64,000 nt of DNA from Acidovorax temperans (lineage in GTDB: Bacteria; Pseudomonadota; Gammaproteobacteria; Burkholderiales; Burkholderiaceae_C). This document shows, one piece after another, positions 14,573-25,986 of the stretch. A program made the translations under genes and the position numbers. Under the pieces are notes generated by a model. That model searched no databases. It was not told the DNA's origin and saw nothing but the letters and a program-made list of their open reading frames with translations. The stretch is from positions 673,501 to 737,500 of the forward strand of contig NZ_VFPV01000001.1 of the NCBI RefSeq assembly GCF_006716905.1, in the 5' to 3' direction. Position 1 is the first letter of the stretch; each line of letters starts with the position of its first letter.

Positions 14573-14623
14573 TTGGGGTGGCTGATGGGGCTCGAACCCA
14601 CGACAACAGGAATCACAATCCTG
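14573..14623 (-). repeat. attL: 3' fragment of tRNA-His
   Basis: These 51 bp are identical to 25909-25959. On the minus strand they hold the anticodon arm and 3' half of tRNA-His with CCA, but the 5' half is missing, so this copy cannot fold as a tRNA. It marks the left end of the element. Confidence 0.9.
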
Positions 14624-14749
14624 ACTTTTTAGTATTTCACCCCGTTGATTGATGCTGATAGAATCAATACAAATCAACAACTTAGACGTAAAGCACTGGA
14701 CAAGTAAACAGCCTTATCGTTGATTGAAATTCGGTAATTTCTACTGAAT

Positions 14750-14769
14750 TTGCCTACAGATTGCCTACA
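14750..14769 (+). repeat. Candidate integrase arm-site repeat, left end
   Basis: TTGCCTACAGATTGCCTACA, itself an 11-bp tandem of TTGCCTACAGA, occurs here between attL and the integrase start. An identical copy in the same orientation lies near the right end (25831-25850). Paired repeats near both ends are typical of integrase arm-type binding sites. Confidence 0.55.
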
Positions 14770-14786
14770 GATTTCAAGGGGGCACC

Positions 14787-16133
14787 ATGAGCAAGCCACA
14801 AAACCGCGTGAGGCTTACCGCTGGCAGGGTTGACGCCTTCACCTGCCCGGCTGGTAAATCCCAGGCTTTTCTATGGGACACCGAAGCCCCAGCACTGGCG
14901 CTGCGTGTGACGCCTACGGGCCGTAAAACCTACGTGTTTGAATCGCGCTTGAACGGGGCAACCTTGCGCCTGAGCATCGGCACTGCCGCCGACTGGCCGC
15001 TTGAAAAGGCCAGAGGCGAGGCACAGCGTCTAAAGGTGCTGGTGGACAGTGGTACAGACCCCCGAGAGCTAGAGCGCCAGCAACAGGCCGCCCAGGCCGC
15101 CGAAAGGGCCGCAGCCGTTGCAAAGGTGAAAGCCGACAAAGTGGCCGCCGTAACCGTGGGCGAAGTCTGGGCGGACTACCTAGAAAAGCGCCGCCCGTTT
15201 TGGGGTGACCTGCACTACCGTGACCATATCGACAAGGCAAAGGCCGGTGGCCTGCCATCGGGCCGCCGTGGTGGTGGCAAGCAACTGACCAAGCCGGGGC
15301 CGCTGGCCGCACTGATGCCGCTGGCGCTGAAAGACCTTGACCAAGCCACGATAGAGCGATGGGCCGCCAATGAAGGCAAGACCCGCCCCTCATCGGCCCG
15401 GCTGGCATGGCGACTGCTGACGGTGTTTTTGACGTGGTGCGCAGAACAGCCGGAATATGCCAACCTGCTGCCCGACAAGAACCCCGCCAAAACCAAGAAG
15501 GCCCGCGAGGCATTGGGCAAGGCCGGGACGAAATCGGACGTGCTACAGCGTGAGCAACTGGCCGCATGGTTTGCCGCTGTGCAGCAGATACAGAACCCGG
15601 TTATTGCCGCCTGCCTGCAAATGATGCTTCTGACGGGTGCCCGCCCTGGCGAAGTGCTGGCGCTGCGCTGGGAGGACGTGAACACGCAATGGAAGGGAAT
15701 CAGCATCCGCGACAAGGTGGAAGGCACACGCGAGATTCCCGCAACGCCTTATATGCTGCACTTGCTGGCCGCCCTGCCCCGCCGCAATGAATGGGTGTTC
15801 TCCAGCCCCACAAGCGCCAGCGGGTGCCTGACCGAACCAAACAACCCGCACACACGCGCCTGTGCCGCCGCTGGCCTGGAGGGCTTGACCCTGCATGGCC
15901 TGCGCCGCTCCTTTGCCAGTCTGACCGAGTGGCTGGAGGTGCCCGCCGGAGTGGTGGCGCAGATTCAGGGCCACAAGCCCAGCGCAACCGCTGAAAAGCA
16001 CTACAAGGTGCGACCGCTGGAACTGCTGCGCGTACACCATGAGCGCATCGAGGCGTGGATTCTGGAACAGGCCGGGATTGTGTTTGATGCCAAGGCCGAA
16101 CCGGGCAAGCTGCGCGTAGTAGGTGCTGCTTGA
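14787..16133 (+). CDS. Tyrosine-type site-specific integrase (P4-like)
   Basis: A 448-residue tyrosine recombinase. The N-terminal 90 residues resemble the arm-DNA-binding domain of P4-type integrases (FLWDTEAPALALRVTPTGRKTYVF). A core-binding domain follows (about 120-245), then the catalytic domain. The catalytic residues are visible: Arg286 in TGARPGEV, His370 and Arg373 in LHGLRRSF, His396 in IQGHKP and Tyr406 in EKHYK. It sits next to attL and presumably recombines the 51-bp tRNA-His sites to integrate the element, or to excise it with an excisionase. The AlpA-like protein at 18555 is a candidate for that helper. Confidence 0.95.
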   Translation: MSKPQNRVRLTAGRVDAFTCPAGKSQAFLWDTEAPALALRVTPTGRKTYVFESRLNGATLRLSIGTAADWPLEKARGEAQRLKVLVDSGTDPRELERQQQAAQAAERAAAVAKVKADKVAAVTVGEVWADYLEKRRPFWGDLHYRDHIDKAKAGGLPSGRRGGGKQLTKPGPLAALMPLALKDLDQATIERWAANEGKTRPSSARLAWRLLTVFLTWCAEQPEYANLLPDKNPAKTKKAREALGKAGTKSDVLQREQLAAWFAAVQQIQNPVIAACLQMMLLTGARPGEVLALRWEDVNTQWKGISIRDKVEGTREIPATPYMLHLLAALPRRNEWVFSSPTSASGCLTEPNNPHTRACAAAGLEGLTLHGLRRSFASLTEWLEVPAGVVAQIQGHKPSATAEKHYKVRPLELLRVHHERIEAWILEQAGIVFDAKAEPGKLRVVGAA

Positions 16134-16156
16134 AATAACGCAACTACAAATAATCC

Positions 16157-16190
16157 TTGAACTTCAAATAAACGTAGCTACACTAAACCA
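16157..16190 (+). promoter_or_regulatory. Promoter and candidate operator of brnT-brnA
   Basis: A sigma70-like TTGAAC (16157-16162) and TACACT (16179-16184) with a 16-bp spacer lie directly before the brnT start at 16190, which implies a very short or absent leader. The palindrome GTAGCTAC (16174-16181) overlaps the -10 region, a likely operator for the BrnT-BrnA complex, which autoregulates in this family. Confidence 0.55.
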
Positions 16191-16468
16191 TGAATGTGAC
16201 GTTCGACCCGGCAAAAGATGCCGCCAATATGGCAAAGCATGGCGTCTCACTGACCGAGGCAGCAGGCTTTGAATGGGGAACCGCCGTAGTGTGGCCGGAC
16301 ACGCGCCGGGACTATGGCGAGGCCCGCATGGTGGCGCTGGGGTACATCGGCCTGCGCATCATGGCGCTGGTGTTTGTTGACCGGCCCCCAGAGCAGCCGA
16401 CCGAGCGCCGCATCATCAGTTTGAGAAAGGCCAACAGCCGAGAGGTGAAACGCTATGCCGAAACTTAA
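16190..16468 (+). CDS. brnT: BrnT family toxin
   Basis: A 92-residue protein with the BrnT fold pattern. The N-terminal FDPAKDAANMAKHGVSLTEA matches the family opening, followed by strands ending in RIISLRKANSREVKRYAE, the conserved RxISxRxAxxxExxxY signature. BrnT is a RelE-like ribonuclease that blocks translation and is neutralised by BrnA. The antitoxin gene overlaps its end by 14 bp in the usual toxin-first order. It probably stabilises the integrative element by post-segregational killing. Confidence 0.9.
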   Translation: MNVTFDPAKDAANMAKHGVSLTEAAGFEWGTAVVWPDTRRDYGEARMVALGYIGLRIMALVFVDRPPEQPTERRIISLRKANSREVKRYAET

Positions 16469-16736
16469 AGCCGGAACCATCCTGCCCACCCCTGCCGAGG
16501 ATGCCGCAATTACTGCCGCTGCGCTGGCAGACCCTGATGCCGTACCTTTCACCGATGCCGAATGGGAGCAGGTCAAGCCGCTGGTGCGTCGTGGCCGCCC
16601 GCTGGGCAGTGGCACCAAAGCCCAGGTAACGCTACGCCTGGACGTGGAGGTGTTGGAGAAGTTCAAGGCATCGGGTGATGGCTGGCAAACCCGCATCAAT
16701 GAGGCCCTGAAAAGCTGGGTGCGCACGCACGCCTGA
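16455..16736 (+). CDS. brnA: BrnA family antitoxin
   Basis: A 93-residue protein. The N-terminal part (LPTPAEDAAITAAALADPDAVPFTDAEWE) is the toxin-binding segment of BrnA. The C-terminal half is a ribbon-helix-helix domain, with the strand KAQVTLRLDVEVLEKFKASGDGWQTRINEALKSW split here as QVTLRLD and the helices after it. It binds BrnT and represses the shared promoter through the palindrome at 16174. It overlaps brnT by 14 bp, which implies coupled translation. Confidence 0.9.
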   Translation: MPKLKAGTILPTPAEDAAITAAALADPDAVPFTDAEWEQVKPLVRRGRPLGSGTKAQVTLRLDVEVLEKFKASGDGWQTRINEALKSWVRTHA

Positions 16737-16838
16737 CCGTTTCGCCCCAGATAGGCCGGGCCGCAATCCTGCCGAAAAGCCAGTCCCCCCGCTGGCCTGC
16801 TGGGGCTCCTGATACCGGGGTGCATCGGGGGATGCTCA

Positions 16839-17786
16839 GTGGAATTGCAGTTCAGCAAAACAGACCTTGGACGCCTGGTTCGCGGGGATTGGGAGCTTGT
16901 TTGTGGTCGCTGGGAGCAGGCAGACCGCATCGGGAAGTGGCTGACCATCAAGAGCGACGGGCTGTACCTGAACGACTGCGAAAAGGCTCCCAAGCCTTGG
17001 GTGCATCCTGGCCGCGAAGGGCTGGTGTTGCCACTGCCAACCTTCACCTTGGAGCAGTTCAAGGCGTTTTGCGATTGGCACCCGACGTTTGAATGGGAAG
17101 CCATCGAATCGGTGTTTACGAACGACGACGGCACACTTGATGAGGGTGCGCTGAAAGAGCTGGCGAGTCGTGGCGAGGCTGCTGCTGCCATGGTTTGTGG
17201 TGTGCTGGCAGGCGCGGACGATGAGTACCTGACAGCGTGGGAAACAAGCTGCCAGATTGATGAATGCAGAGCGGAGATTGCCGAGCTGAAAAGCCTCAAG
17301 CCGACCACAATCACCGAGCGAGCGATTGCCAAACAGGAGTTGGAGAAACTGGAAAGCAGGCTGACTGCGCTGCTGAACCCCGATGCCGAGCCGAGCACAA
17401 CCGAAAGCCTAGAACCCGCAGTACCAGCGCAGCAACAGCCCGAGCCCGCCGCAGTAGAGGCTTCGCCAGTGCAGCCCCAGGCCGCACCGCCCGCGCCAGT
17501 GGTGGCAGACAGCGCCAGCACTGCGCCCGATTGGACAGTTAGGAAGCCCCAGCGATACAACGGATATGCCGCACCCCTGCATCGCCTGCTTGCCGCCGCG
17601 CATCGGGACGGCAATCCGTGCCCGACCGCCCGCGATGTGGTGGAGGCGTGGCGCAACAACGCCCCCGCCGAAATTGCAAAAGTGCTGCCGGACGGGTTCG
17701 ATTACTACGACGCCAAAGGCAACACAAAAACAGCCGACCTTGAAGCAATCCGTAAGGCAATCGGACGGATGAAAATCGCCCGGTAA
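16839..17786 (+). CDS. Unknown protein of the integrative element
   Basis: A 315-residue protein that I do not recognise. It starts at GTG 16839 with GGGGGA eight bases upstream. The N-terminal half is mixed alpha/beta and Trp-rich (RGDWELVCGRWEQADRIGKW). Residues about 135-185 are predicted coiled coil, and about 190-235 is a Pro/Ala/Gln-rich linker. The C-terminal 75 residues form a compact block beginning KPQRYNGYAAPLHRLLAAAH. The linker separates two likely domains. It lies between brnA and the IS200 insertion, and the IS lies just after its stop, leaving the gene intact. Confidence 0.55.
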   Translation: MELQFSKTDLGRLVRGDWELVCGRWEQADRIGKWLTIKSDGLYLNDCEKAPKPWVHPGREGLVLPLPTFTLEQFKAFCDWHPTFEWEAIESVFTNDDGTLDEGALKELASRGEAAAAMVCGVLAGADDEYLTAWETSCQIDECRAEIAELKSLKPTTITERAIAKQELEKLESRLTALLNPDAEPSTTESLEPAVPAQQQPEPAAVEASPVQPQAAPPAPVVADSASTAPDWTVRKPQRYNGYAAPLHRLLAAAHRDGNPCPTARDVVEAWRNNAPAEIAKVLPDGFDYYDAKGNTKTADLEAIRKAIGRMKIAR

Positions 17787-17798
17787 GCGCCCGGTAAC

Positions 17799-18460
17799 CA
17801 TCCCCCGGCAAAGCCGGGGGCATTCGGGATGTGAGCCGCTCAAAGCGGCTGTAAGGGGTCGCTAACGCGGCCCCTCATTCTTGGGGCCACCTATCGGTGG
17901 CTACTCACCTCCATAGACCGAGTTGGTCCAACCTCTCGTCTTCCTTCTCCTGGTTTCGGATGTACTCCCGTATCACCGCTTCGTCGCGTCCCACCGTCGA
18001 GACGAAGTACCCTCGCGCCCAGAAGTGCTGACCCACGAAGTTGCGCTTTCGCTCTCCGTACACCCGCGCAAGGTGGATTGCGCTCTTGCCTTTGATAAAG
18101 CCCACCACCTGCGACACCGAGTACTTCGGTGGGATCGACAGCATCATGTGCACGTGATCGGGCATCAGATGCCCCTCTTCAACCCTGCATTCCTTTTGCG
18201 CGGCCAACTTTCTGAATACCTCACCCAGGTGTTCGCGTAGCTGCTTGTACAGCGTTCGCCTTCGACACTTGGGGATGAAGACCACGTGATATTTGCAATC
18301 CCAGGCCGTGTGACTCAAACTTTCATACTTGTCCATCGTGTTTCTTCCTTTCGTTTGCTTGGCGGCTCACGATTGAAAGTCTCTACGGTGGACAACCTCC
18401 TGAAAAGTCAAACTTCTACTGCCTCCCCGGCAGAGCCGGGGGGCCTCCTTTTGGTAGCTA
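17799..18460 (-). mobile_element. IS200/IS605-family insertion sequence, copy 1
   Basis: A 662-bp unit containing a single TnpA gene. It is preceded by GGTAAC and ends TAGCTA. The left end has a CCCCCGGC/GCCGGGGG hairpin and the right end a CCCCGGC/GCCGGGG hairpin, as IS200 elements have subterminal hairpins instead of terminal inverted repeats. There is no target duplication. Copy 2 at 43005-43666 has the same length and an identical protein, so transposition was recent. Confidence 0.85.
17905..18336 (-). CDS. tnpA: IS200/IS605 family transposase TnpA
   Basis: A 143-residue HUH (Y1) transposase. The HUH motif is in DHVHMMLSIPP (His-Val-His), and the catalytic Tyr lies in the C-terminal helix around YIRNQEKEDE. 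The opening CKYHVVFIPKCRRRTLY is typical. It cuts and joins single-stranded DNA at the hairpin ends, moving a single-stranded circle to a short target motif (here GTAAC). No TnpB partner is present. The protein is identical to the one at 43111-43542. Confidence 0.95.
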   Translation of the reverse strand: MDKYESLSHTAWDCKYHVVFIPKCRRRTLYKQLREHLGEVFRKLAAQKECRVEEGHLMPDHVHMMLSIPPKYSVSQVVGFIKGKSAIHLARVYGERKRNFVGQHFWARGYFVSTVGRDEAVIREYIRNQEKEDERLDQLGLWR

Positions 18461-18554
18461 GAGCCGATAAGCGCCCGCCAGAGCCGACAGGATAGGGGAA
18501 ACACACACCCCAGAAAAATCATCGCTGCATACCAACTTTACGGAATGCAAAGCG

Positions 18555-18815
18555 ATGAAAGCCAGCACAACCCAACACAGCGCAGACACCCGCAGCGCTG
18601 TCACTGAGCCCCAACAGTTCCCCCCGCTGGAACAGGTCAACCGCCCCACGGTGCCGACCGAGCAAGCCGCCCATTACCTGCTGCGCCGCCCGCAGACCTT
18701 GAGGGGCTGGGCCTGCGCCGAAACATTCCCTGATGGCCTGCGCCCGGTGCGCATCAATGGCCGCTTGGGCTGGCCGGTAGCTGGCATCCGCGCCGCGCTG
18801 GGGGTGGCAGCATGA
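18555..18815 (+). CDS. AlpA/excisionase-like DNA-binding protein
   Basis: An 86-residue protein. The first 38 residues are polar and probably disordered. The rest is a MerR/excisionase-like winged helix: VPTEQAAHYLLRRPQTLRGW forms the helix-turn-helix and RINGRLGWPVAGIRAALG the wing and last helix. Proteins of this kind regulate integrase genes or act as directionality factors for excision. It is the first gene after the IS200 insertion and overlaps the next gene by 4 bp, starting a run of coupled genes. Confidence 0.6.
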   Translation: MKASTTQHSADTRSAVTEPQQFPPLEQVNRPTVPTEQAAHYLLRRPQTLRGWACAETFPDGLRPVRINGRLGWPVAGIRAALGVAA

Positions 18816-19213
18816 GCACGACCACCATCTACACCCACCCGGACGGGCACGAAATCACCGTGGGCGATGGACTCCTGACCGCCTGCACAAGCGACGGGTT
18901 TGCACTGTCTATGCCCATTGGCCCGGCTGGCCTGCGCGATGTGGCTGCAAAGCTGCTGGCGCTGGCCGATGCAGACGAGGCCGATGGGGCTGAACGTGCC
19001 GGTGCAGCATTGGGCGGCGAGTTGCTGGCCGAACTGCTGGCGCTGCGTTGCAGCCCCCAGGCCGATGCACTGCGCCACGTTCACGGCAAGCTGCTGGCCC
19101 TGCACAAGCTGGAGCACTTCGACCGCGCCGCTGGTGGCTTCGCAGTGGCACTGGTTGCCGTGCTGGTGCTGGGCATTGCGAACCTGCCGAAGTTTGAAGG
19201 GGCGAAGCAATGA
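18812..19213 (+). CDS. Unknown small protein with C-terminal membrane segment
   Basis: A 133-residue protein that I do not recognise. The N-terminal 40 residues are beta-rich (TTIYTHPDGHEITVGDGLLT). The middle is helical and Ala/Leu-rich, and residues about 112-127 (GFAVALVAVLVLGIANL) form a likely transmembrane helix close to the C-terminus. It overlaps the AlpA-like gene and the next gene by 4 bp each, so all three are probably translated together. Confidence 0.5.
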   Translation: MSTTTIYTHPDGHEITVGDGLLTACTSDGFALSMPIGPAGLRDVAAKLLALADADEADGAERAGAALGGELLAELLALRCSPQADALRHVHGKLLALHKLEHFDRAAGGFAVALVAVLVLGIANLPKFEGAKQ

Positions 19214-19665
19214 AAAAAGCCCCCGCTATGAAGCAAGGGGCCGCCGTGGCAGGCACTCCGATTTTCCCTCAAAGAACCAACACCGTTATCGCCGAAGTTT
19301 TGGCCCGGCTGCTGCGTGGCGAAGTGCTCACGTCACTGGATTCTGTTTTTGATTCCAGCACCACGCGCCTGAGCGCATTCATTTTCACCCTCAACGGGAA
19401 CGGCTGGGAGATTGAATCGGAGCCCTTCGCCGCCGGTTGCAAAGATGGCCGGGTTTCGTGGCCGCACAAGTACTACCTGCGCACAGAGGTGATTGCGAAG
19501 GCTGGCCCAGGCGCTGCCGCATGGTGCGCCGCCGTGTTCAAAGCCCGGCGCGATTTACGTCGCAAGGCCGCCCAGGCCGAGCGCGAGGCCGCACGGCTGA
19601 ACGCCATGCGACGCGCAAGCCGTGTGCATCCGGGGCAGCAGGGGTTGTTTGAGGCGGGCTTCTGA
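19210..19665 (+). CDS. Helix-turn-helix domain protein of mobile elements
   Basis: A 151-residue protein. Residues about 22-80 (NTVIAEVLARLLRGEVLTSLDSVFDSSTTRLSAFIFTL is the region, shown here only by its ends) look like the small helix-turn-helix domain common in prophage and integrative-element proteins of beta- and gammaproteobacteria. The motif FAAGCKDGRVSWPHKYYL follows. The C-terminal 50 residues are a basic, Ala-rich helix. It may bind DNA as an accessory factor; the exact role is unknown. It overlaps the gene before it and ends 1 bp before the relaxase start. Confidence 0.5.
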   Translation: MKKAPAMKQGAAVAGTPIFPQRTNTVIAEVLARLLRGEVLTSLDSVFDSSTTRLSAFIFTLNGNGWEIESEPFAAGCKDGRVSWPHKYYLRTEVIAKAGPGAAAWCAAVFKARRDLRRKAAQAEREAARLNAMRRASRVHPGQQGLFEAGF

Positions 19666-19666
19666 C

Positions 19667-20899
19667 ATGGCCGCAGACATTGCCTACTTCGCGGCAAAGA
19701 CTGTCAGCATGAGCAAGGTCAACGGGCGCAAGCCCTGCGACCTGCTGACTGCCGCCCGCCACAACCTGCGCGAGATTCAGGCAGAGCTTGGCAGCGTGGG
19801 CCGGATTGACCCAGGCCGCAGCGCCACGAATGCCATCCTGGCAGGCCCAGCCGAGGCCGCCCAGGTTCAGGCCCTGGCCGTGGACTTGCTGGCCGCTGCT
19901 GGGCTCAAACCTGCTGCCATGCGCCGCGACCACGTTCAGGCGCTGGAGTTTGTTTTCAGCCTGCCGCCATCGTGTGGGGTTGACCCTGCCACCTACTTTG
20001 CCCGCTGCCTTGCGTGGCTGATGGAGGCTCTGCCGCTGCCGGTGCTGTCTGCCGTGAGCCATGCCGACGAGCTTGCGCCGCACCTTCACGTTCTGCTGCT
20101 GCCGCTGGCTGATGGCGTGCATGTGGGGGGCAAACCCGTGGAACGCCCCAAGCTGCTGCGATTGCGCGATGGCTTTTTCAACGTGGTGGCCGGGCCTGCC
20201 GGATTGCAGCGCGAGTCGGCCAAGCTGCGCGGACAGGCCAAACGCTGGGCAGTTACCGCCGTCCTGACCCGCTGTGAAGCGATGGGACTGCCTGCCGTCA
20301 ATGGCCCGCTATGGCCGGTGCTGATGGCCGCCATCGAGCGCGACCCGACCGCCGCCGTGCGTGCGTTGGGGATTGAACTGAGCGCCCAAAAAGACCGCCA
20401 AACCCAGGCCGAGCCAAACCCTATAGGGATTGAAGGAACCACGATGAGCAGCAAAGCAAACCCTATAGGGATTGAAAAACAGGGCGAAAAAATCCAATCC
20501 CTATCCTGTGTAGGGATTGACTCAAAAACCCCCCTCAAAACAGCCCCTGCGTCCCGCCCAGGCCGAGCACCAGCGATGCCAGAACCGGCCCACAAAGACA
20601 GTTCGGGCGCTGGTGCTGATGGCATCGGGAAGCGCAACGTCATCGAATCGCTGGACGACCTTTGGCAGCGTGTCGGCATCCGTGCGATGGCTCTACCCAA
20701 GATTGGCCGCGCCGGGGCTCTGCTGGCCGACAAGACCGCCGCCGGACGCACCGACCGCCTGAGCGTGGCGCGGGCCGCCCAGCTTGAGGCCATCGCCCGG
20801 CAGACCCGCAAGCAGCCTGCGCCCGTGCTGGCCGACCCAGACGACGACCGGCATGTTGACCGCAGCGAAGCCCAAGACCTGCACGCCTGGAACGATTGA
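19667..20899 (+). CDS. MobV (Mob/Pre)-like relaxase
   Basis: A 410-residue protein. The pattern of Mob/Pre relaxases is visible. An N-terminal ARHNLREIQAELG with RIDPGRSATN corresponds to the family's first motif. The metal-binding three-His motif appears as SHADELAPHLHVLLLPL, compare HxDE...PHxH. Such enzymes nick plasmid DNA at oriT and lead transfer. After about residue 240 comes a variable linker that contains the PNPIGIE repeats encoded by the palindromic DNA repeats at 20415-20519, then a helical C-terminus. The start at 19667 follows the previous stop by one base. The family match is made by motif only, without a search. Confidence 0.65.
   Translation: MAADIAYFAAKTVSMSKVNGRKPCDLLTAARHNLREIQAELGSVGRIDPGRSATNAILAGPAEAAQVQALAVDLLAAAGLKPAAMRRDHVQALEFVFSLPPSCGVDPATYFARCLAWLMEALPLPVLSAVSHADELAPHLHVLLLPLADGVHVGGKPVERPKLLRLRDGFFNVVAGPAGLQRESAKLRGQAKRWAVTAVLTRCEAMGLPAVNGPLWPVLMAAIERDPTAAVRALGIELSAQKDRQTQAEPNPIGIEGTTMSSKANPIGIEKQGEKIQSLSCVGIDSKTPLKTAPASRPGRAPAMPEPAHKDSSGAGADGIGKRNVIESLDDLWQRVGIRAMALPKIGRAGALLADKTAAGRTDRLSVARAAQLEAIARQTRKQPAPVLADPDDDRHVDRSEAQDLHAWND
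20415..20519 (+). repeat. Palindromic repeats inside the relaxase gene
   Basis: CAAACCCTATAGGGATTGAA occurs perfectly at 20415-20434 and 20457-20476. A third copy of the core TAGGGATTG lies at 20511-20519, faced by the inverted core CAATCCCTA at 20495-20503. The copies are 42 and 45 bp apart, so they keep the reading frame. They encode the PNPIGIE peptide twice. Confidence 0.75.
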
Positions 20900-20915
20900 A
20901 CCCGAGGACACCACC

Positions 20916-21365
20916 ATGACCACCAAACTGACCCACCACCACTTGAGCGCCGAGCAGGTAAACGACGAGCACGGCACGGCCATCATGCTGACCCAGCAAG
21001 ACGGGATTGAAGAACCGCAATCCGTGCTGGTGCATCCGTTCCAGCTTCGGGCAGTCTGTGAACAGTTCGGCATCATCGCCAGTGACACCCGTGCGGCAAA
21101 GACCATCGCCACATTGCAGCGCCGCATGGTGGGACTGCGCGACCGTATCGACAACTTGGCCGACTGGATGGCAAATCACAGCGACCACGCGCACGCCGAC
21201 CTGAGTTATGAAACGACCCAGCTACGTGCGCTGCAAGACCTGGCGGGCGAGTGGTGTGCGGACTTCGAGGAAGGCTTACCCGAAGGCTTTGGCGAAGGCC
21301 CGCAACAACAGACCACGCCGCCCGAGTGCACCAGTGCACCCGCCGCCCAGGCTTCATTGCTCTGA
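20916..21365 (+). CDS. Unknown protein of the integrative element
   Basis: A 149-residue acidic protein that I do not recognise. The N-terminal half is mixed (LSAEQVNDEHGTAIMLTQQ). Residues about 65-105 form a long helix (AKTIATLQRRMVGLRDRIDN) that may be a coiled coil, and the C-terminal 25 residues are low complexity. It starts 16 bp after the relaxase stop, so it is probably in the same transcript and could assist mobilization. This is inference from position only. Confidence 0.5.
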   Translation: MTTKLTHHHLSAEQVNDEHGTAIMLTQQDGIEEPQSVLVHPFQLRAVCEQFGIIASDTRAAKTIATLQRRMVGLRDRIDNLADWMANHSDHAHADLSYETTQLRALQDLAGEWCADFEEGLPEGFGEGPQQQTTPPECTSAPAAQASLL

Positions 21366-21375
21366 GGAACTGGAC

Positions 21376-21687
21376 ATGACCGATGCAGAACGACGCCGCA
21401 TGTGGCGCAGCTACGTGGACGCCTACTTTCGAGCGCAAGGGGCGTGGGAGGCCGCAGGAAGGCCCTTTCCGCGCCCGCCCATGCCTACCCAGCCAGAAGC
21501 GGTGCAGGGGCTCCAATGCGGTGCTACGACGCGTGCAGGCACCCCATGCAAACTGACCGGGCTCTACAAGTCGGGCCGCTGCAAGCTGCATGGGGGTATG
21601 TCCACCGGGCCGAAAACCGATGCAGGCCGGGAGCAATCGCGCATCAACGGGGCCAAGGGTGGCAGGCCGCGCAACCCAAGCCCGTGA
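21376..21687 (+). CDS. HGGxSTGxKT family protein
   Basis: A 103-residue protein with the name-giving motif HGGMSTGPKT near residues 75-84. It is preceded by CGATTRAGTPCK and GRCKL, which with the His suggest a small zinc-binding or nucleic-acid-binding unit. A basic tail, INGAKGGRPRNP, ends it. Members are common in phages and integrative elements and have no settled function. It starts 10 bp after the previous stop and is the last gene of this coupled run. Confidence 0.7.
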   Translation: MTDAERRRMWRSYVDAYFRAQGAWEAAGRPFPRPPMPTQPEAVQGLQCGATTRAGTPCKLTGLYKSGRCKLHGGMSTGPKTDAGREQSRINGAKGGRPRNPSP

Positions 21688-22363
21688 AGGGTTATGGAAA
21701 GCTCACTTTGGGGTCACTGCTGCGTTACAGTGTCTGTGACGCTTAGTTTTCCTTTGCTTTTATGCCACTCCAACCAACCAGCAAAGGCCGTAGCCCTGAG
21801 CCCGCAGAGGCAGTGACTCATGGGAATTACGGCCCTGCGAGTCACAAGCCGCAAGTACCAGCAGGCGATACGCAATACGACTCTGGTTGGTACAAACGGA
21901 ATACTGAAATAGAGACGCGCAAGTGTGGGTTGCTGAATAGAGCCATCGATGTGTTTTGTGATTTCATCGGCATTCACCGTGCTGGCGCACCGTTTAGAAA
22001 CCGATTGCGGGATTGAAAAGACTTGCTTTAAGGGGCGGTATCGAGCCCAGGTATCCACGGAAAAACACTTTCCTGAAAACCGTAACTTCCGCTGTAGCAG
22101 CAAATGCGCTACTTGCGTATGTGTTTCCAGTCCTAGTTTCGAAGGTGTTTCCACAAAAAAATGATGTTCCTGCCGGTACGCATCGACCAAATACGCGAGG
22201 CCGGTACGCATGAAAGCATCACTTTGGCATCACCGCCCGGTCACCGCTTGGTTTCCCGTGGGTGCCACTGGGTTGCCACTGGGTTTACAGACTGCACAAA
22301 GCCTAAGCAGGAAATCACGCTCTGCTTAAAATTTAGGCACCCAAACCAACCCGAAGCAAAGCG
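21688..22363 (+). other. Non-coding block in the integrative element with short repeats
   Basis: About 0.68 kb without a convincing gene and with lower GC than its surroundings. It holds a direct repeat GCCGGTACGCAT (22172-22183 and 22200-22211) and a tandem 11-bp repeat GCCACTGGGTT (22263-22284). A short frame at 21762-22016 has no recognisable features. Placed between the mobilization-type genes and the replication-type genes, it could hold promoters or a transfer origin, but nothing proves that. Confidence 0.4.
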
Positions 22364-22795
22364 ATGCGCCTGAACCTGTCCGATGCTGTGGATGACCTGG
22401 CACCGCCGCCTCCGCCGTGCTTTTTCAACCGCAGCAGTTGGATGCTGTACCTCAAGAGCGCAGCCGCAGCGCAGAACCACAAGGGTAGCCAGCCCGTCAT
22501 CATCGTGGCCGCTGATGGCGAACCGGCATTCAATACCCGCCTGAACTACTGCGCGGACTGCACCCAGGCAAAGAGCCTGGAGATGCAAGGCAAGGGCCGG
22601 TGCAACCCCTACCACCTGAGCGATGACCCCGAGCCGGTGCCTGCTGGAGGGTGGCAGGCCAGCGACACGGCAGCACCACCGCGCACCAAAACGCAACAGG
22701 CCCAAGACCTACCCGTGAGCCAAGCACTGCGCTGGCAGGATGCCTTTGAGCGGCTGGTGACGCACCTGCTGGCGCTGGGTGCCCGCACGGTGTGA
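22364..22795 (+). CDS. Unknown protein with a Cys cluster
   Basis: A 143-residue protein that I do not recognise. It has a Pro-rich segment near residues 13-19, then SSWMLYLKSAAAA, and a possible zinc site YCADCTQAKSLEMQGKGRC followed by NPYHL (Cys-x2-Cys ... Cys-x3-His). The C-terminal 30 residues are helical. A Cys-rich centre with WMLYL resembles small DNA-associated proteins of prophages, but no family can be named. It has its own start after the 0.68 kb non-coding block. Confidence 0.45.
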   Translation: MRLNLSDAVDDLAPPPPPCFFNRSSWMLYLKSAAAAQNHKGSQPVIIVAADGEPAFNTRLNYCADCTQAKSLEMQGKGRCNPYHLSDDPEPVPAGGWQASDTAAPPRTKTQQAQDLPVSQALRWQDAFERLVTHLLALGARTV

Positions 22796-23535
22796 GCATG
22801 TTCCGCGCATGGCCCAGGCATGATTCGAGCGTGGGGCAACAGTTGCCGCCGATGCCCAGCGCCCCTATCGAGGCTGGCTTTGCGCCCATAACACGCCGAG
22901 AACGATGATGTGGAGTCCGATGGTGCCACTGCGGGTAACGCAGACGGCACCTACGCACCTGAGTCCTCTGGTATTCGGAATCAGGAGGGAGCGGACCGCC
23001 CCAACTCTACCCCAGGCAACCACATATGTCAGATTGGGTTTCGCTTTTTGGCGCTGCCAGCAAAGCGGTAATCCAGACTTTGGGTTGCTCCGAGTGCGAC
23101 GACTGGCACCACTCGGTATGTGGTCAGAATTCGCCTGACCGGCAAAGCAATGTGGTGTGCCCCTGGCGCGACGATGAACACCGCCAAGTATGTGAACCGG
23201 GTGACACAACTCGCCGGTTCGGCACGGCCAGCAGTTTACGAGGTTCGATATTGGCCGACACAACTTGCCGTGCTACAGTTCGCTCAAGCCGAAAGGCTCG
23301 GTGCGTTCAAACACCACATCCGAAGCGGTAGCAGCCCCCACCGATAAGCGGGGTTTTGTCATGCCCAAATTCTGGGGCCGGTGCGCCTGCACTTGTCTCC
23401 CATGGTTTCGGGCGGGATGGGCTTACCCGCAAGGATGGCCGCACGGCTTCGGACGTGTTTGAAACATCCCGCCCACCTGCTGCGCGTTCAAACGCAAACG
23501 GTGGATTCCTTGCCACTCCCGAAGGAGCCAAGACC
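22796..23535 (+). other. Region without a confident gene, possible leader or regulatory RNA zone
   Basis: Several short frames cross this 0.74 kb, but none shows a motif, clear ribosome site or convincing codon use; the longest plus frame is 23026-23331. A GC stem followed by TTTT (about 23335-23357) looks like a weak terminator. The in-frame extension upstream of the gene at 23536, from 23356, has a composition often seen before genes of prophage satellites. Parallel leader regions in P4-like satellites carry immunity RNAs, so a regulatory RNA is possible but not shown. Confidence 0.3.
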
Positions 23536-23739
23536 ATGACCGCAATCACTGAGCGCAAACCCGCGCCCAGCACGTCCACACCGGACACCATCCCCACCGC
23601 CAACCTGACCGCCGTTCTGGCCGCCTTCAACGCGGCAAACCTGGCATCCAACTACATCGAGCGCGGCAACTTCGCCGCTGCCCGCCGCAAGCTGGTGCAG
23701 GCGCTGGCATCCATCGGCCAACTGCAAGCGGGGGGCTGA
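23536..23739 (+). CDS. Unknown small helical protein
   Basis: A 67-residue protein. The first 25 residues are Pro/Thr-rich; the rest is an amphipathic helical hairpin (NLTAVLAAFNAANLASNYIE and FAAARRKLVQALASIGQL). The ATG at 23536 has GGAG about 12 bases upstream. The frame is open upstream to 23356, so a longer 127-residue form cannot be excluded. It is the first gene of a run of four leading to the Rep-like gene, with the next ATG 2 bp after its stop. Confidence 0.45.
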   Translation: MTAITERKPAPSTSTPDTIPTANLTAVLAAFNAANLASNYIERGNFAAARRKLVQALASIGQLQAGG

Positions 23740-23741
23740 CC

Positions 23742-23951
23742 ATGAGCAGCACTACCCACACCGCCCACCCCCAGGGCGAGGCCGCCGCATTGCGTGAAGC
23801 CCTGCGCCTGGCACTGGCCGCGCTGGAGAAGGCCCTTGATGACGGCTGCGCCATCGAAGCGCACGACCGGATGACGATTGACGGCGACACCTGGACTTTT
23901 GGCGGTATCTGCGCCCTGGCCCATGACGCCCTGACCAGAAAAGGGGATTGA
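23742..23951 (+). CDS. Unknown small protein
   Basis: A 69-residue acidic protein: an Ala/Leu-rich helix (ALREALRLALAALEKAL) followed by CAIEAHDRMTIDGDTWTFGG. No family is recognised. It is packed between its neighbours with gaps of 2 and 3 bp, which supports real translation as part of one transcript with the Rep-like gene. Confidence 0.5.
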   Translation: MSSTTHTAHPQGEAAALREALRLALAALEKALDDGCAIEAHDRMTIDGDTWTFGGICALAHDALTRKGD

Positions 23952-23954
23952 GCC

Positions 23955-24743
23955 ATGGCGTACTTCATCCCCGCAGATACCCCACTCAACCCGACCGAGG
24001 CCAGAGCCCCCGCAGCACCCGCCGCTGGGCCATGGACGCCCGCCAACCACATCAAAGATGGGGTGACCAAGCCCATTCGCTTGCTGGCGCTGGGCACAGG
24101 GGAATACGGAAAGACCGCGCTGCTGGAGTTCCCTGGCGGCTGGCAGCGCACGATTGACCTGCCCACCGAGGCAGACGCTTGGCACCCGTTGTTCTCTGAG
24201 CTGCCACAGGCAGATGTGCAGCGACTGCGCAAGCATGTGGCCCACCCCATCATCCGCCACCCAGACGGCACCCGCACGCGCCGAGGGGCTCTGTCCTTTG
24301 TCACCGAGGAAGTCGGCCCAGCAGGCGGATACAAAGCAGAGCGCTGCTTTGATGTTCCCCAAGAGGACTTCTACTCTGGGTGCGTCACGGGCTACCGCTG
24401 CGCCGCTGAACTGCTGGAGGCCCTGGCGCGTGGATACGGGCCGCACATCATCAAGCAACACGTCATCAAGGAAGCACTGCAAGCCAGTGGTGAACCCTAC
24501 AGCAAGCCATCCCGGCGCGGTGCAGGTTCCGCTTTCATGGAGATTGTCGGTGAGGCCCTGACTTTCATGGCCCGACACTCCCTGCACGGGCAATACATGG
24601 CCGCAAAGATTGCCGAGGCCGAGCGCTTGCAAGCAACCATGGCGGAGCTGGACGCAAAAGAGAAGGCCGCTTTCGTGGAGCGCATGAAGGCCGTCAGACT
24701 CAGCAAAGCACAGCGTAGAGTCAGCACCACGGCGCAGCACTGA
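23955..24743 (+). CDS. Unknown protein upstream of the Rep-like gene
   Basis: A 262-residue protein that I do not recognise. The N-terminal 35 residues are Pro/Ala-rich. The central domain contains RLLALGTGEYGKTALLEFPG and YRCAAELLEALARGYGPHI, and the C-terminal 60 residues form a charged helix (AKIAEAERLQATMAELDAKE) likely to be a coiled coil. No Walker or nuclease motif is visible. It lies 3 bp before the Rep-like gene and may act with it in replication or partition; that is inference from position. Confidence 0.5.
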   Translation: MAYFIPADTPLNPTEARAPAAPAAGPWTPANHIKDGVTKPIRLLALGTGEYGKTALLEFPGGWQRTIDLPTEADAWHPLFSELPQADVQRLRKHVAHPIIRHPDGTRTRRGALSFVTEEVGPAGGYKAERCFDVPQEDFYSGCVTGYRCAAELLEALARGYGPHIIKQHVIKEALQASGEPYSKPSRRGAGSAFMEIVGEALTFMARHSLHGQYMAAKIAEAERLQATMAELDAKEKAAFVERMKAVRLSKAQRRVSTTAQH

Positions 24744-24746
24744 GCC

Positions 24747-25583
24747 ATGGCGAACGGACGCAACAAGCTACGCCGGGGCGATGCGGGCCGGGACGCTGGC
24801 GGGTTCGTGGCCCTGCCGTGGTCGGTGCTGGACTCGCCCGCCTACTCAGGCTTGAGCCATCCGGCCAAGGCTTTGCTGCTGGAGTTCGCCCGCCAGTTCG
24901 TGCGTGACAACAACGGGAGGTTGCTGTGCAGCATGACCTACCTTGGCCCGCGTGGCTGGAAGTCCAACGACGTCATTACCCGCGCCGTGCGCGAGCTGGT
25001 GGCCGCTGGGTTCGTTCACCAGACCGCGCAAGGGCACCGCCCGAGCAAGGCGAGCTGGTACGCCGTGACCTGGCGAGCGCTTGACCGGCACCCAGGCTAC
25101 GACGTGGGCACCATGGAGAGCTTCCAGCGTGGTGCGTACCGGCTTTGGGTAGCAGCCCAGCGCCCTACCGAAATTGCCCCGCCTACACCGTCTCCCGGTG
25201 CAGAGAAAAACGCGAGCCTTACACCGTCTCCCGGTGTAGAGAGGGCTTCGCGTGCACCGTCTCCCGGTGTAGGAGCGCTGCCTACTGCACCGTCTCCCGG
25301 TGCTGTAGAGGGGGGTTTTGGTACTTTCTCTACACCGGGAGACGGTGACCATCTAGAGAAACCATCTACAGCACAGCGCAGCGGGGATGTTCAGGAGGTT
25401 GAAGGGGTGCAAGAGAGGTGGGCCAACATTGAGCAGGAAGACGACGCCGCCAGCAGTAGGCGCGAGGCAGCACCGCGACCCACCAGACCCAGGAGAAAGC
25501 CAAAGGGGCCGGGGCTGGATGATGCCCAGCACGTACCGCAACCGCCCGACCCAACTGCGCAGCTTGAGTTGCTGTTGCCGTAG
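24747..25583 (+). CDS. Replication-initiator-like winged-helix protein with internal iterons
   Basis: A 278-residue protein. Residues about 20-115 look like a winged-helix DNA-binding domain of the phage O / plasmid Rep type: GGFVALPWSVLDSPAYSGLS, helices around HPAKALLLEFARQFV, and NDVITRAVRELVAAGFV as recognition region. The middle (about 145-200) encodes repeated TPSPG or APSPG peptides, because five copies of a 15-bp palindromic iteron lie in the coding DNA. The C-terminal part is basic and low complexity. The layout, with DNA-binding N-terminus and origin repeats inside the gene, is like lambda gene O. It is the last gene of the element. Confidence 0.6.
   Translation: MANGRNKLRRGDAGRDAGGFVALPWSVLDSPAYSGLSHPAKALLLEFARQFVRDNNGRLLCSMTYLGPRGWKSNDVITRAVRELVAAGFVHQTAQGHRPSKASWYAVTWRALDRHPGYDVGTMESFQRGAYRLWVAAQRPTEIAPPTPSPGAEKNASLTPSPGVERASRAPSPGVGALPTAPSPGAVEGGFGTFSTPGDGDHLEKPSTAQRSGDVQEVEGVQERWANIEQEDDAASSRREAAPRPTRPRRKPKGPGLDDAQHVPQPPDPTAQLELLLP
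25186..25347 (+). repeat. Iteron array inside the Rep-like gene (candidate replication origin)
   Basis: CACCGTCTCCCGGTG occurs perfectly four times in direct orientation (25186-25200, 25222-25236, 25255-25269, 25288-25302) and once inverted (25333-25347). Start-to-start spacing is 36, 33 and 33 bp, about three helical turns. Each copy is itself a dyad, CACCG-N5-CGGTG. A T-rich stretch (GGTTTTGGTACTTTCT) lies between the fourth and fifth copies. Confidence 0.85.
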
Positions 25584-25830
25584 GGGCATCCGCTGGGTGA
25601 CGGTTACGCAGGCCATGGTTACGGCGATGGTTACACCCTGGCGCTGCATTCAAACGGGCACTAAGTACCCGATTGCAGAGAGCAGCGCTGAGGGTGGGTA
25701 CTGAGTGCCCACCCAGCAGAACGACCTACAGACCCGCCGCGAGCGGGTTTTCTTTTGCTGGCGCTGGTGGCCGAGTGCCTGCCGCCGTGGGGCTTTTTCT
25801 GTGCCGTGACCGGGGCTGGATTTGGGTAAG

Positions 25831-25850
25831 TTGCCTACAGATTGCCTACA
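25831..25850 (+). repeat. Candidate integrase arm-site repeat, right end
   Basis: A 20-bp copy identical to 14750-14769 and in the same orientation, 59 bp inside the right att repeat. The left copy is 126 bp inside the left att repeat. The unequal spacing is normal for integrase arm sites. Confidence 0.55.
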
Positions 25851-25862
25851 AGCAACAGAAAA

Positions 25863-25899
25863 GAAAAAACCCCACTACCAAATTGATAGCGGGGTTTCC
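25863..25899 (-). terminator. Element-supplied terminator for tRNA-His
   Basis: On the minus strand, AAACCCCGCTA pairs with TAGTGGGGTTT (one mismatch), followed by a T-rich run. It lies 11 bp past the tRNA-His 3' end and replaces the original terminator, now at 14504-14535. Confidence 0.7.
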
Positions 25900-25909
25900 T
25901 TTGTTTACT

Positions 25910-25986
25910 TGGGGTGGCTGATGGGGCTCGAACCCACGACAACAGGAATCACAATCCTGGACTCTACCAACTGAGCTACAGCCACC
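25910..25986 (-). tRNA. tRNA-His (anticodon GTG), host of the integrative element
   Basis: Read on the minus strand, GGTGGCTG with the extra 5' G typical of tRNA-His, D arm GCTCAGTTGGTAGAG, anticodon loop ATTGTGATT with GTG, T arm with GGTTCGAGCCC, and an encoded CCA. The 3' 50 bases lie in the att repeat, so the element supplies or retains a complete 3' half and the tRNA stays functional. Confidence 0.95.

What the first reader, a model, noticed from the sequence alone, without database searches (positions are those of the whole stretch)
25186..25347. Iteron array inside the coding sequence of a Rep-like gene: a candidate lambda-O-type origin
Five perfect copies of the 15-bp dyad CACCGTCTCCCGGTG (four direct, one inverted) lie inside the gene at 24747-25583 at 36, 33 and 33 bp spacing. 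The N-terminus of the product looks like a winged-helix DNA-binding domain. Established: lambda O binds four iterons within its own gene. Inference: this integrative element has its own replication origin in the rep gene and can replicate when excised.
Basis: partly seen in the sequence, partly recalled or inferred. Interest (0 to 1): 0.75.

Follow-up and report, generated by a model that had tools for sequence, protein, structure and literature searches.

The report
Self-recognised repeat array in mobile island
A small mobile DNA island carries a gene for a DNA-binding protein that ends in, or just before, the row of DNA sites that the protein itself appears to recognise, most likely the island's own start point for copying its DNA; protein and sites have changed together in dozens of related islands.

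Summary
The repeats are real: five perfect copies, four direct and one inverted; 500 random and 500 recoded versions of the gene never reach three. The gene is the last one of an 11,336-bp element in tRNA-His. In 82 distinct related arrays the conserved object is not the local dyad but a ~150-bp array of four two-armed units, spaced 33/33/45 in 79, flanked by two conserved boxes. Arms R1, R2, L3 and L4 share one sequence per element, L2 and R3 another. The array persists where the reading frame stops before or inside it (19 of 82). Arm sequence follows residues 63, 74 and 78 of the encoded winged-helix protein (37 contrasts, five rules drawn from the same data: 31 with, 0 against, 6 neutral; held-out support partial). 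So the element's own protein very probably reads the array as duplex DNA. A replication origin is the best function: remote matches to phage and plasmid initiators, in-gene layout as in lambda O and pSK41, a primase-type gene directly upstream in 6 of 77 loci. Against: no AT-rich region, no conserved C-terminal domain. New variant of a known kind; origin activity untested.

The parts
14573..25908 (.). integrative element, 11,336 bp
   Evidence: 51-bp perfect direct repeat 14573-14623 / 25909-25959; the right copy is the 3' part of tRNA-His 25910-25985 -
14787..16133 (+). tyrosine integrase
   Evidence: Pfam Phage_integrase 3.7e-13
16744..16820 (+). int-alpA RNA
   Evidence: RF02996, 50.2 bits, cut-off 35.8
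18555..18815 (+). AlpA-like small gene (label recalled)
   Evidence: cluster c4 in 27 loci; no NCBIfam match
19622..20899 (+). MobV-like relaxase
   Evidence: Pfam Mob_Pre 25.4 bits, just under the 25.5 cut-off; NCBIfam MobV 34.7 bits, cut-off 100
23955..24743 (+). conserved gene just upstream of the winged-helix gene
   Evidence: cluster c73 in 5 loci; no Pfam match
24747..25583 (+). winged-helix protein gene, 278 aa
   Evidence: remote PHROG matches of its family to replication initiators
24747..25142 (+). conserved winged-helix domain, residues 1-132; predicted recognition helix 74-87
   Evidence: alignment A4; AlphaFold best model pLDDT 84, the five models 84 to 64
25186..25200 (+). extra unit before the conserved array
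25206..25221 (.). 5' box AAAAACGCGAGCCTTA
   Evidence: conserved across arrays
25217..25241 (+). unit 1: arm L1, core TCTCC, arm R1
25250..25274 (+). unit 2: arm L2, core TCTCC, arm R2
25283..25307 (+). unit 3: arm L3, core TCTCC, arm R3
25328..25352 (+). unit 4: arm L4, inverted core GGAGA, arm R4
25348..25367 (.). 3' box ACCATCTAGAGAAACCATCT
   Evidence: conserved in A5 and recognisable by eye in distant members
25560..25577 (+). codons for QLELLL, possible sliding-clamp motif (motif recalled)
   Evidence: such a motif in 4 of 82 products: window, L068, L081, L089

Best explanation
The array at 25217-25367 is a cis site read as duplex DNA by the winged-helix protein encoded around it, and most likely is the element's replication origin. 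Proposed steps: integrase excises the element between the 51-bp repeats; the protein binds the mirror-symmetric half-sites (A class R1, R2, L3, L4; B class L2, R3); the complex, perhaps with a factor at the conserved 3' box, lets the host's, a helper's or, where present, the element's own helicase and primase start replication. Shown here: conservation of the array, its independence of the reading frame, and residue-site co-variation. Inferred: binding, origin firing, helicase recruitment.
For: Homologue in 29 of 198 genomes, own included. Of 91 sequences (76 + 14 loci, and the window) 84 arrays were parsed, 82 distinct. 19 of 82 frames stop before or inside the array or its 3' box. Residue-site rules by greedy independent contrasts, site change with/against/none: R63~GT 13/0/2, Q or D78~T 7/0/4, R74~GA 5/0/0, K74 3/0/0, H74 3/0/0. 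Partial Mantel r 0.319 for five chosen residues, 0 of 1000 permutations. L146 and L084 differ at 9 aligned residues, 7 of them within 61-83, and their site changes from ACACCG to ACTACG. Array model: 19 of 20 genomes with a match carry the wH gene beside it. Initiator links: PHROG replication-initiation families in 25-27 of 40 members at E up to 1, best 1.1e-5; PDB initiator 4pta E 0.0025 with profile A1; initiator domains among the top VIA rows, Z 7.4. A Toprim/primase-type cluster lies near wH in 7 of 77 loci, directly upstream in 6.
Against: No AT-rich region: median percentile 0.58 against the rest of the same locus, 76 loci. No conserved C-terminal domain: 48 of 82 products end no more than 20 aa after the 3' box. 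Profile A4 finds no initiator in the PDB. Foldseek has no PDB match at E 0.001 or below, and CodY and the MarR-type AdcR rank first; TFIIE ties with the initiators by VIA, at a Z that may mean only a common fold. 70 of 77 loci show no member of that primase cluster in the flanks held. Held-out arrays: residue-63 rule 9 of 10 right (Fisher p 0.033), residue-78 rule 8 of 10 (p 0.17), the one lysine-74 case wrong (L178). ACA and ACG sites go with the same residues. Helix 1 (residues 40-50) correlates with the site as well as the recognition helix does (0.168 against 0.15-0.16). L164 and L186 have an intact domain and no array.
Confidence: 0.65

Rival explanations
1. The array is a folded RNA or single-stranded DNA element: one long hairpin pairing R1-L4, L2-R3 and R2-L3.
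For: RNAalifold finds it with 15 of 22 pairs changed on both sides; 92.2% of cells pair and no shuffle of 500 reaches the covariation.
Against: Arms in the same orientation, which cannot pair, are as alike as the pairing ones: R1-R2 0.89 and L3-L4 0.85 against R1-L4 0.85 and R2-L3 0.81. The best match, R2-L4, lies outside the nested fold. No consistent G-T over A-C excess. No Rfam family reaches its threshold there. Arms follow recognition-helix residues.
Confidence: 0.1
2. The protein and array serve packaging of a satellite: the array is a pac or cos-like site and the protein a small-terminase-like adaptor.
For: 10 of 77 loci have a phage capsid gene cluster and 10 a large-terminase cluster downstream.
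Against: 7 of the 77 loci carry a separate small-terminase candidate (label recalled); 67 of 77 show no capsid cluster in the flanks held, the window among them; remote matches are to initiators.
Confidence: 0.1
3. The array is an operator or silencer: the protein regulates genes downstream.
For: Weak MarR and GntR matches of a few members; a capsid gene starts 0.45-0.95 kb downstream in eight loci.
Against: The commonest downstream cluster is in 18 of 86 loci, and in the window only the att site follows. A four-unit mirror array with conserved boxes is more than a simple operator needs (judgement).
Confidence: 0.1
4. The repeats only encode a repeated peptide (TPSPG).
For: 63 of 82 frames run through the array.
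Against: 19 of 82 stop first; the inverted copy encodes another peptide; recoding never reproduces the copies.
Confidence: 0.02

Closest known systems
RepA_N plasmid initiators, pSK41 Rep (PMC5703833, passages read)
   Same: N-terminal winged helix binds four Rep boxes inside the rep gene; protein sequence encoded by the ori is dispensable; initiator N-terminal domains 4pt7 and 4pql are the first two VIA rows (that these are RepA_N domains is recalled).
   Different: No RepA_N Pfam match up to E 1, no conserved C-terminal domain; here paired half-sites in mirror order, at the 3' end of the gene or after it.
Phage lambda O and its origin (recalled)
   Same: Winged-helix initiator with four dyad-like iterons inside its own gene; PHROG O-like matches.
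   Different: No Phage_rep_O match up to E 1; no AT-rich region; 48 of 82 products end no more than 20 aa after the 3' box.
PICI pri-rep-ori modules (PMC6092414, passages read)
   Same: Initiator gene followed directly by iterons, on an element with int and alpA; primase-type gene upstream in 6 of 77 loci.
   Different: PICI origins are described as two iteron sets flanking an AT-rich region; here none was found, and 70 of 77 loci show no member of the primase cluster in the flanks held.

Membership tests
RepA_N initiators | RepA_N Pfam domain | tested here: not met
   24 members scanned, E up to 1: not among the 15 families listed
RepA_N initiators | winged-helix NTD fold of the family | tested here: inconclusive
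   first VIA rows 4pt7, 4pql, Z 7.4 and 7.2, tied with TFIIE; 4pta E 0.0025 with A1, no initiator with A4
RepA_N initiators | conserved C-terminal domain that contacts DnaG | tested here: not met
   48 of 82 products end no more than 20 aa after the 3' box; DnaG contact not testable
Lambda O-type initiators | Phage_rep_O domain | tested here: not met
   no match up to E 1 in 24 members
Lambda O-type initiators | similarity to O-like phage initiators | tested here: inconclusive
   PHROG 678 in 26 of 40 members at E up to 1, best 1.1e-5; the window protein itself reaches only phrog_428, E 0.18
Lambda O-type initiators | four binding sites within the initiator gene | tested here: inconclusive
   four-unit array, within the frame in 63 of 82; binding itself not testable here
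Iteron origins | AT-rich unwinding region beside the sites | tested here: not met
   median percentile 0.58, 76 loci
Iteron origins | autonomous replication | not testable with these tools
   needs a mini-replicon
PICI satellites | int, alpA, primase, rep, ori together | tested here: inconclusive
   integrase cluster in 66 of 77 loci, alpA-like in 22, primase-type in 7, within the flanks held; the window element shows a relaxase and no member of the primase cluster
Structured RNA families | Rfam match at the array | tested here: not met
   none in the window up to E 0.1; in 14 loci up to E 1 only two miRNA matches far below threshold

The most novel reading that the evidence does not exclude
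A widespread initiator family, not seen described in my searches, in which the whole functional protein is one winged-helix domain and the origin has no AT-rich region. Specificity is rewritten by about three residues, giving an incompatibility code that lets many related satellites and mobilizable islands coexist.
Probability: 0.4. Interest if true: 0.72.

Novelty: new variant of a known kind. Interest (0 to 1): 0.58.

Why it matters
Initiators are known to read in-gene origins in a few model replicons. Here 82 natural protein-site pairs give a partly readable recognition code, so specificity, incompatibility between islands and co-evolution can be tested directly. It also suggests that small integrated elements without a visible primase may replicate when excised. 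And it is a warning: co-varying half-sites mimic a conserved RNA structure.

Tried and rejected
Rejected: protein repeats (19 of 82 frames stop first); chance; RNA hairpin. Thought unlikely but not tested: an excision-factor site (in loci with head genes the integrase lies kilobases upstream and the head genes downstream; element ends not mapped there); a partition centromere (a ParB_N protein was seen in one scanned member of a cluster in 3 loci; ParA was not searched). No match of the protein in phages and one 40% match in plasmids, both at E 1e-5.

Rows dropped: of 91 sequences L157 gave no parse and six scored low (L103, L127, L129, L139, L141, L142). The array model finds the array in L127 and L129 and half of it in L103, and none in L139, L141 and L142, whose domain matches are partial. 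Two duplicate arrays (L150, L156) were removed. The parser favoured 33/33/45 spacing. L068 was parsed one unit out of register and left out of A5 together with L109, L126 and L149 (78 of 82 used). On 53 later loci, which overlap with the earlier genomes, the array model matches 42. The 11 without a match are L164, L186 (locus ends 358 bp after the domain) and nine loci outside the close family.

Held-out: 15 new arrays scored above 10; the 10 with at least 50% identity to a training row were judged. The five more distant ones were not; of these L193 has F63 with a GT site and R74 without GA, against both rules. The rules and the five Mantel residues were drawn from the same 82 arrays. The 37 contrasts use 30 distinct locus pairs, so they are not all independent of each other. 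A second weak array match in G115 (324962-325061) was not followed.

Literature: six searches; among the rows shown I saw none on this module; only the listed rows were seen. Two papers were read in passages only.

Full report
Observation. Five perfect 15-mers lie at the stated places and nowhere else in the genome with at most one mismatch. Random and recoded versions of the gene never gave more than two copies of any 15-mer within 200 bp (500 each).

Element. A 51-bp perfect direct repeat at 14573 and 25909 bounds 11,336 bp. The right copy is the 3' part of a tRNA-His gene. The element carries an integrase, an int-alpA RNA, a MobV-like relaxase just under its Pfam cut-off and, as its last gene, the gene in question. 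Same-genus genomes match named Acidovorax contigs by length and position, so the host is probably Acidovorax (inference).

Homologues. 29 of 198 genomes, own included, encode a relative. A pattern scan gave 76 loci in genome contigs and 14 in viral contigs. With the window, 84 of 91 sequences gave a parsed array and 82 were distinct; two more carry a diverged array and one half an array. Spacing is 33, 33 and 45 bp in 79 of 82, with a parser that favours it. A 5' box (AAAAACG...CCTTA) and a 3' box (ACCATCTAGA...CCATCT) flank it. Distant members, 33-42% identical in the domain, keep the array and a recognisable 3' box.

DNA, not peptide. 19 of 82 reading frames stop before or inside the array or its 3' box, yet the array stays. 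With a sequence-only array model, 20 of 198 genomes matched, and 19 of these carry the winged-helix gene beside the array. The twentieth, G080, is weak (E 7.7e-4). Ten of the 29 genomes with the gene had no array match in that search: two genes are truncated (G008, G043), seven are at most 43% identical, and G136 (60% identical) has none in the 358 bp left on its contig. G421 (L164, 69% identical) also lacks it within 1.5 kb.

Anatomy. Arms within one unit pair in 70.8% of cells, arms of different units in 92.2%. At the locus-specific bases R1, R2, L3 and L4 agree in 80-91% within an array but 42-47% between arrays. L2 and R3 agree in 87%, against 61-68% between arrays. The order is therefore C-A, B-A | A-B, A-C', a large mirror. 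The array model also matches the opposite strand of many of the same arrays.

RNA or DNA? The pattern looks like a covarying hairpin. But arms in the same orientation, which cannot pair, are as alike as pairing ones (R1-R2 0.89, L3-L4 0.85), and G-T and A-C mismatches show no consistent bias. A common reader explains this better.

The best AlphaFold model (pLDDT 84; the other four 80 to 64) is a winged helix with helices 63-69 and 74-87. Arginine 63 goes with GT in the arm, arginine 74 with GA, lysine 74 with G followed by C or T, histidine 74 with TC, glutamine or aspartate 78 with T. On a tree built without residues 58-90, 37 contrasts over the five rules (30 distinct locus pairs) gave 31 site changes as predicted, none against, and 6 without a site change. 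The rules were drawn from these data. Residues 63, 72, 74, 77 and 78 correlate with the site after correction for the rest of the protein (partial Mantel r 0.319, 0 of 1000). Among 11-residue segments, helix 1 (40-50, 0.168) scores as high as the recognition helix (0.15-0.16), so the signal is not confined to one helix. On 10 held-out arrays the residue-63 rule was right in 9, the residue-78 rule in 8, and the single lysine-74 case was wrong (p 0.033 and 0.17 for the first two). ACA and ACG sites share the same residues, so the code is partial.

Function. Members match PHROG replication initiators (428, 678, 270) in 25-27 of 40 cases at E up to 1, best 1.1e-5. The window protein alone does so only at E 0.18. 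Solved initiator domains lead the structural list (4pt7, 4pql; Z 7.4, 7.2), but a transcription factor ties, and such a Z may mean only a common fold; Foldseek itself gave no match at E 0.001 or below. A Toprim/primase-type cluster lies near in 7 of 77 loci, directly upstream in 6, with a helicase-cluster gene just before it in 5. Of this cluster five members were scanned: four show Toprim, and L141, whose wH gene is truncated, Toprim and DUF3987. Integrase clusters occur in 66 of 77 loci and capsid clusters in 10. Published parallels are pSK41 Rep, with four Rep boxes inside rep (PMC5703833, passages), and PICI rep followed by ori (PMC6092414, passages).

Against an origin. No AT-rich region, no conserved C-terminal domain, and 70 of 77 loci show no member of the primase cluster in the flanks held. 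Four products, the window's among them, end in or near QLELLL or QLELML (4 of 82), like a sliding-clamp motif (recalled), which fits an initiator but is not tested.

Conclusion. That the element's own protein reads the array is very likely (my estimate 0.9). That the array is an origin is likely (0.65). No family is claimed: RepA_N and Phage_rep_O matches were tested and not met.

Noticed in passing
25348-25367: The 3' box (ACCATCTAGA...CCATCT) is a highly conserved stretch that is not an arm, recognisable even in distant members; its reader is unknown.
   Followed up: partly
16744-16820: int-alpA RNA (RF02996), also found in L017 upstream of the homologous gene.
   Followed up: no
23411-23481: Sub-threshold sRNA-Xcc1 match (32.4 of 53 bits), at a similar relative place in L007 and L008.
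   Followed up: no
17905-18336: ORF that reads like an IS200-type transposase (label recalled) inside the element.
   Followed up: no
L068:10001-10700: Domain 98% identical to the window's, but one unit fewer in the array, as if a unit was lost or gained recently.
   Followed up: no
L074, L084, L085, L144, L146, L155: wH gene and array upstream of capsid, protease, portal, HNH, terS and TerL clusters (some labels recalled): candidate capsid-forming satellites.
   Followed up: partly
19210-19665: Product ends with QQGLFEAGF, and a relative (cluster c30, L079) with QGDLF near its end, resembling clamp-binding ends (recalled).
   Followed up: no
L181:1504-2496: Two winged-helix copies in tandem; the array follows the second one.
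   Followed up: no
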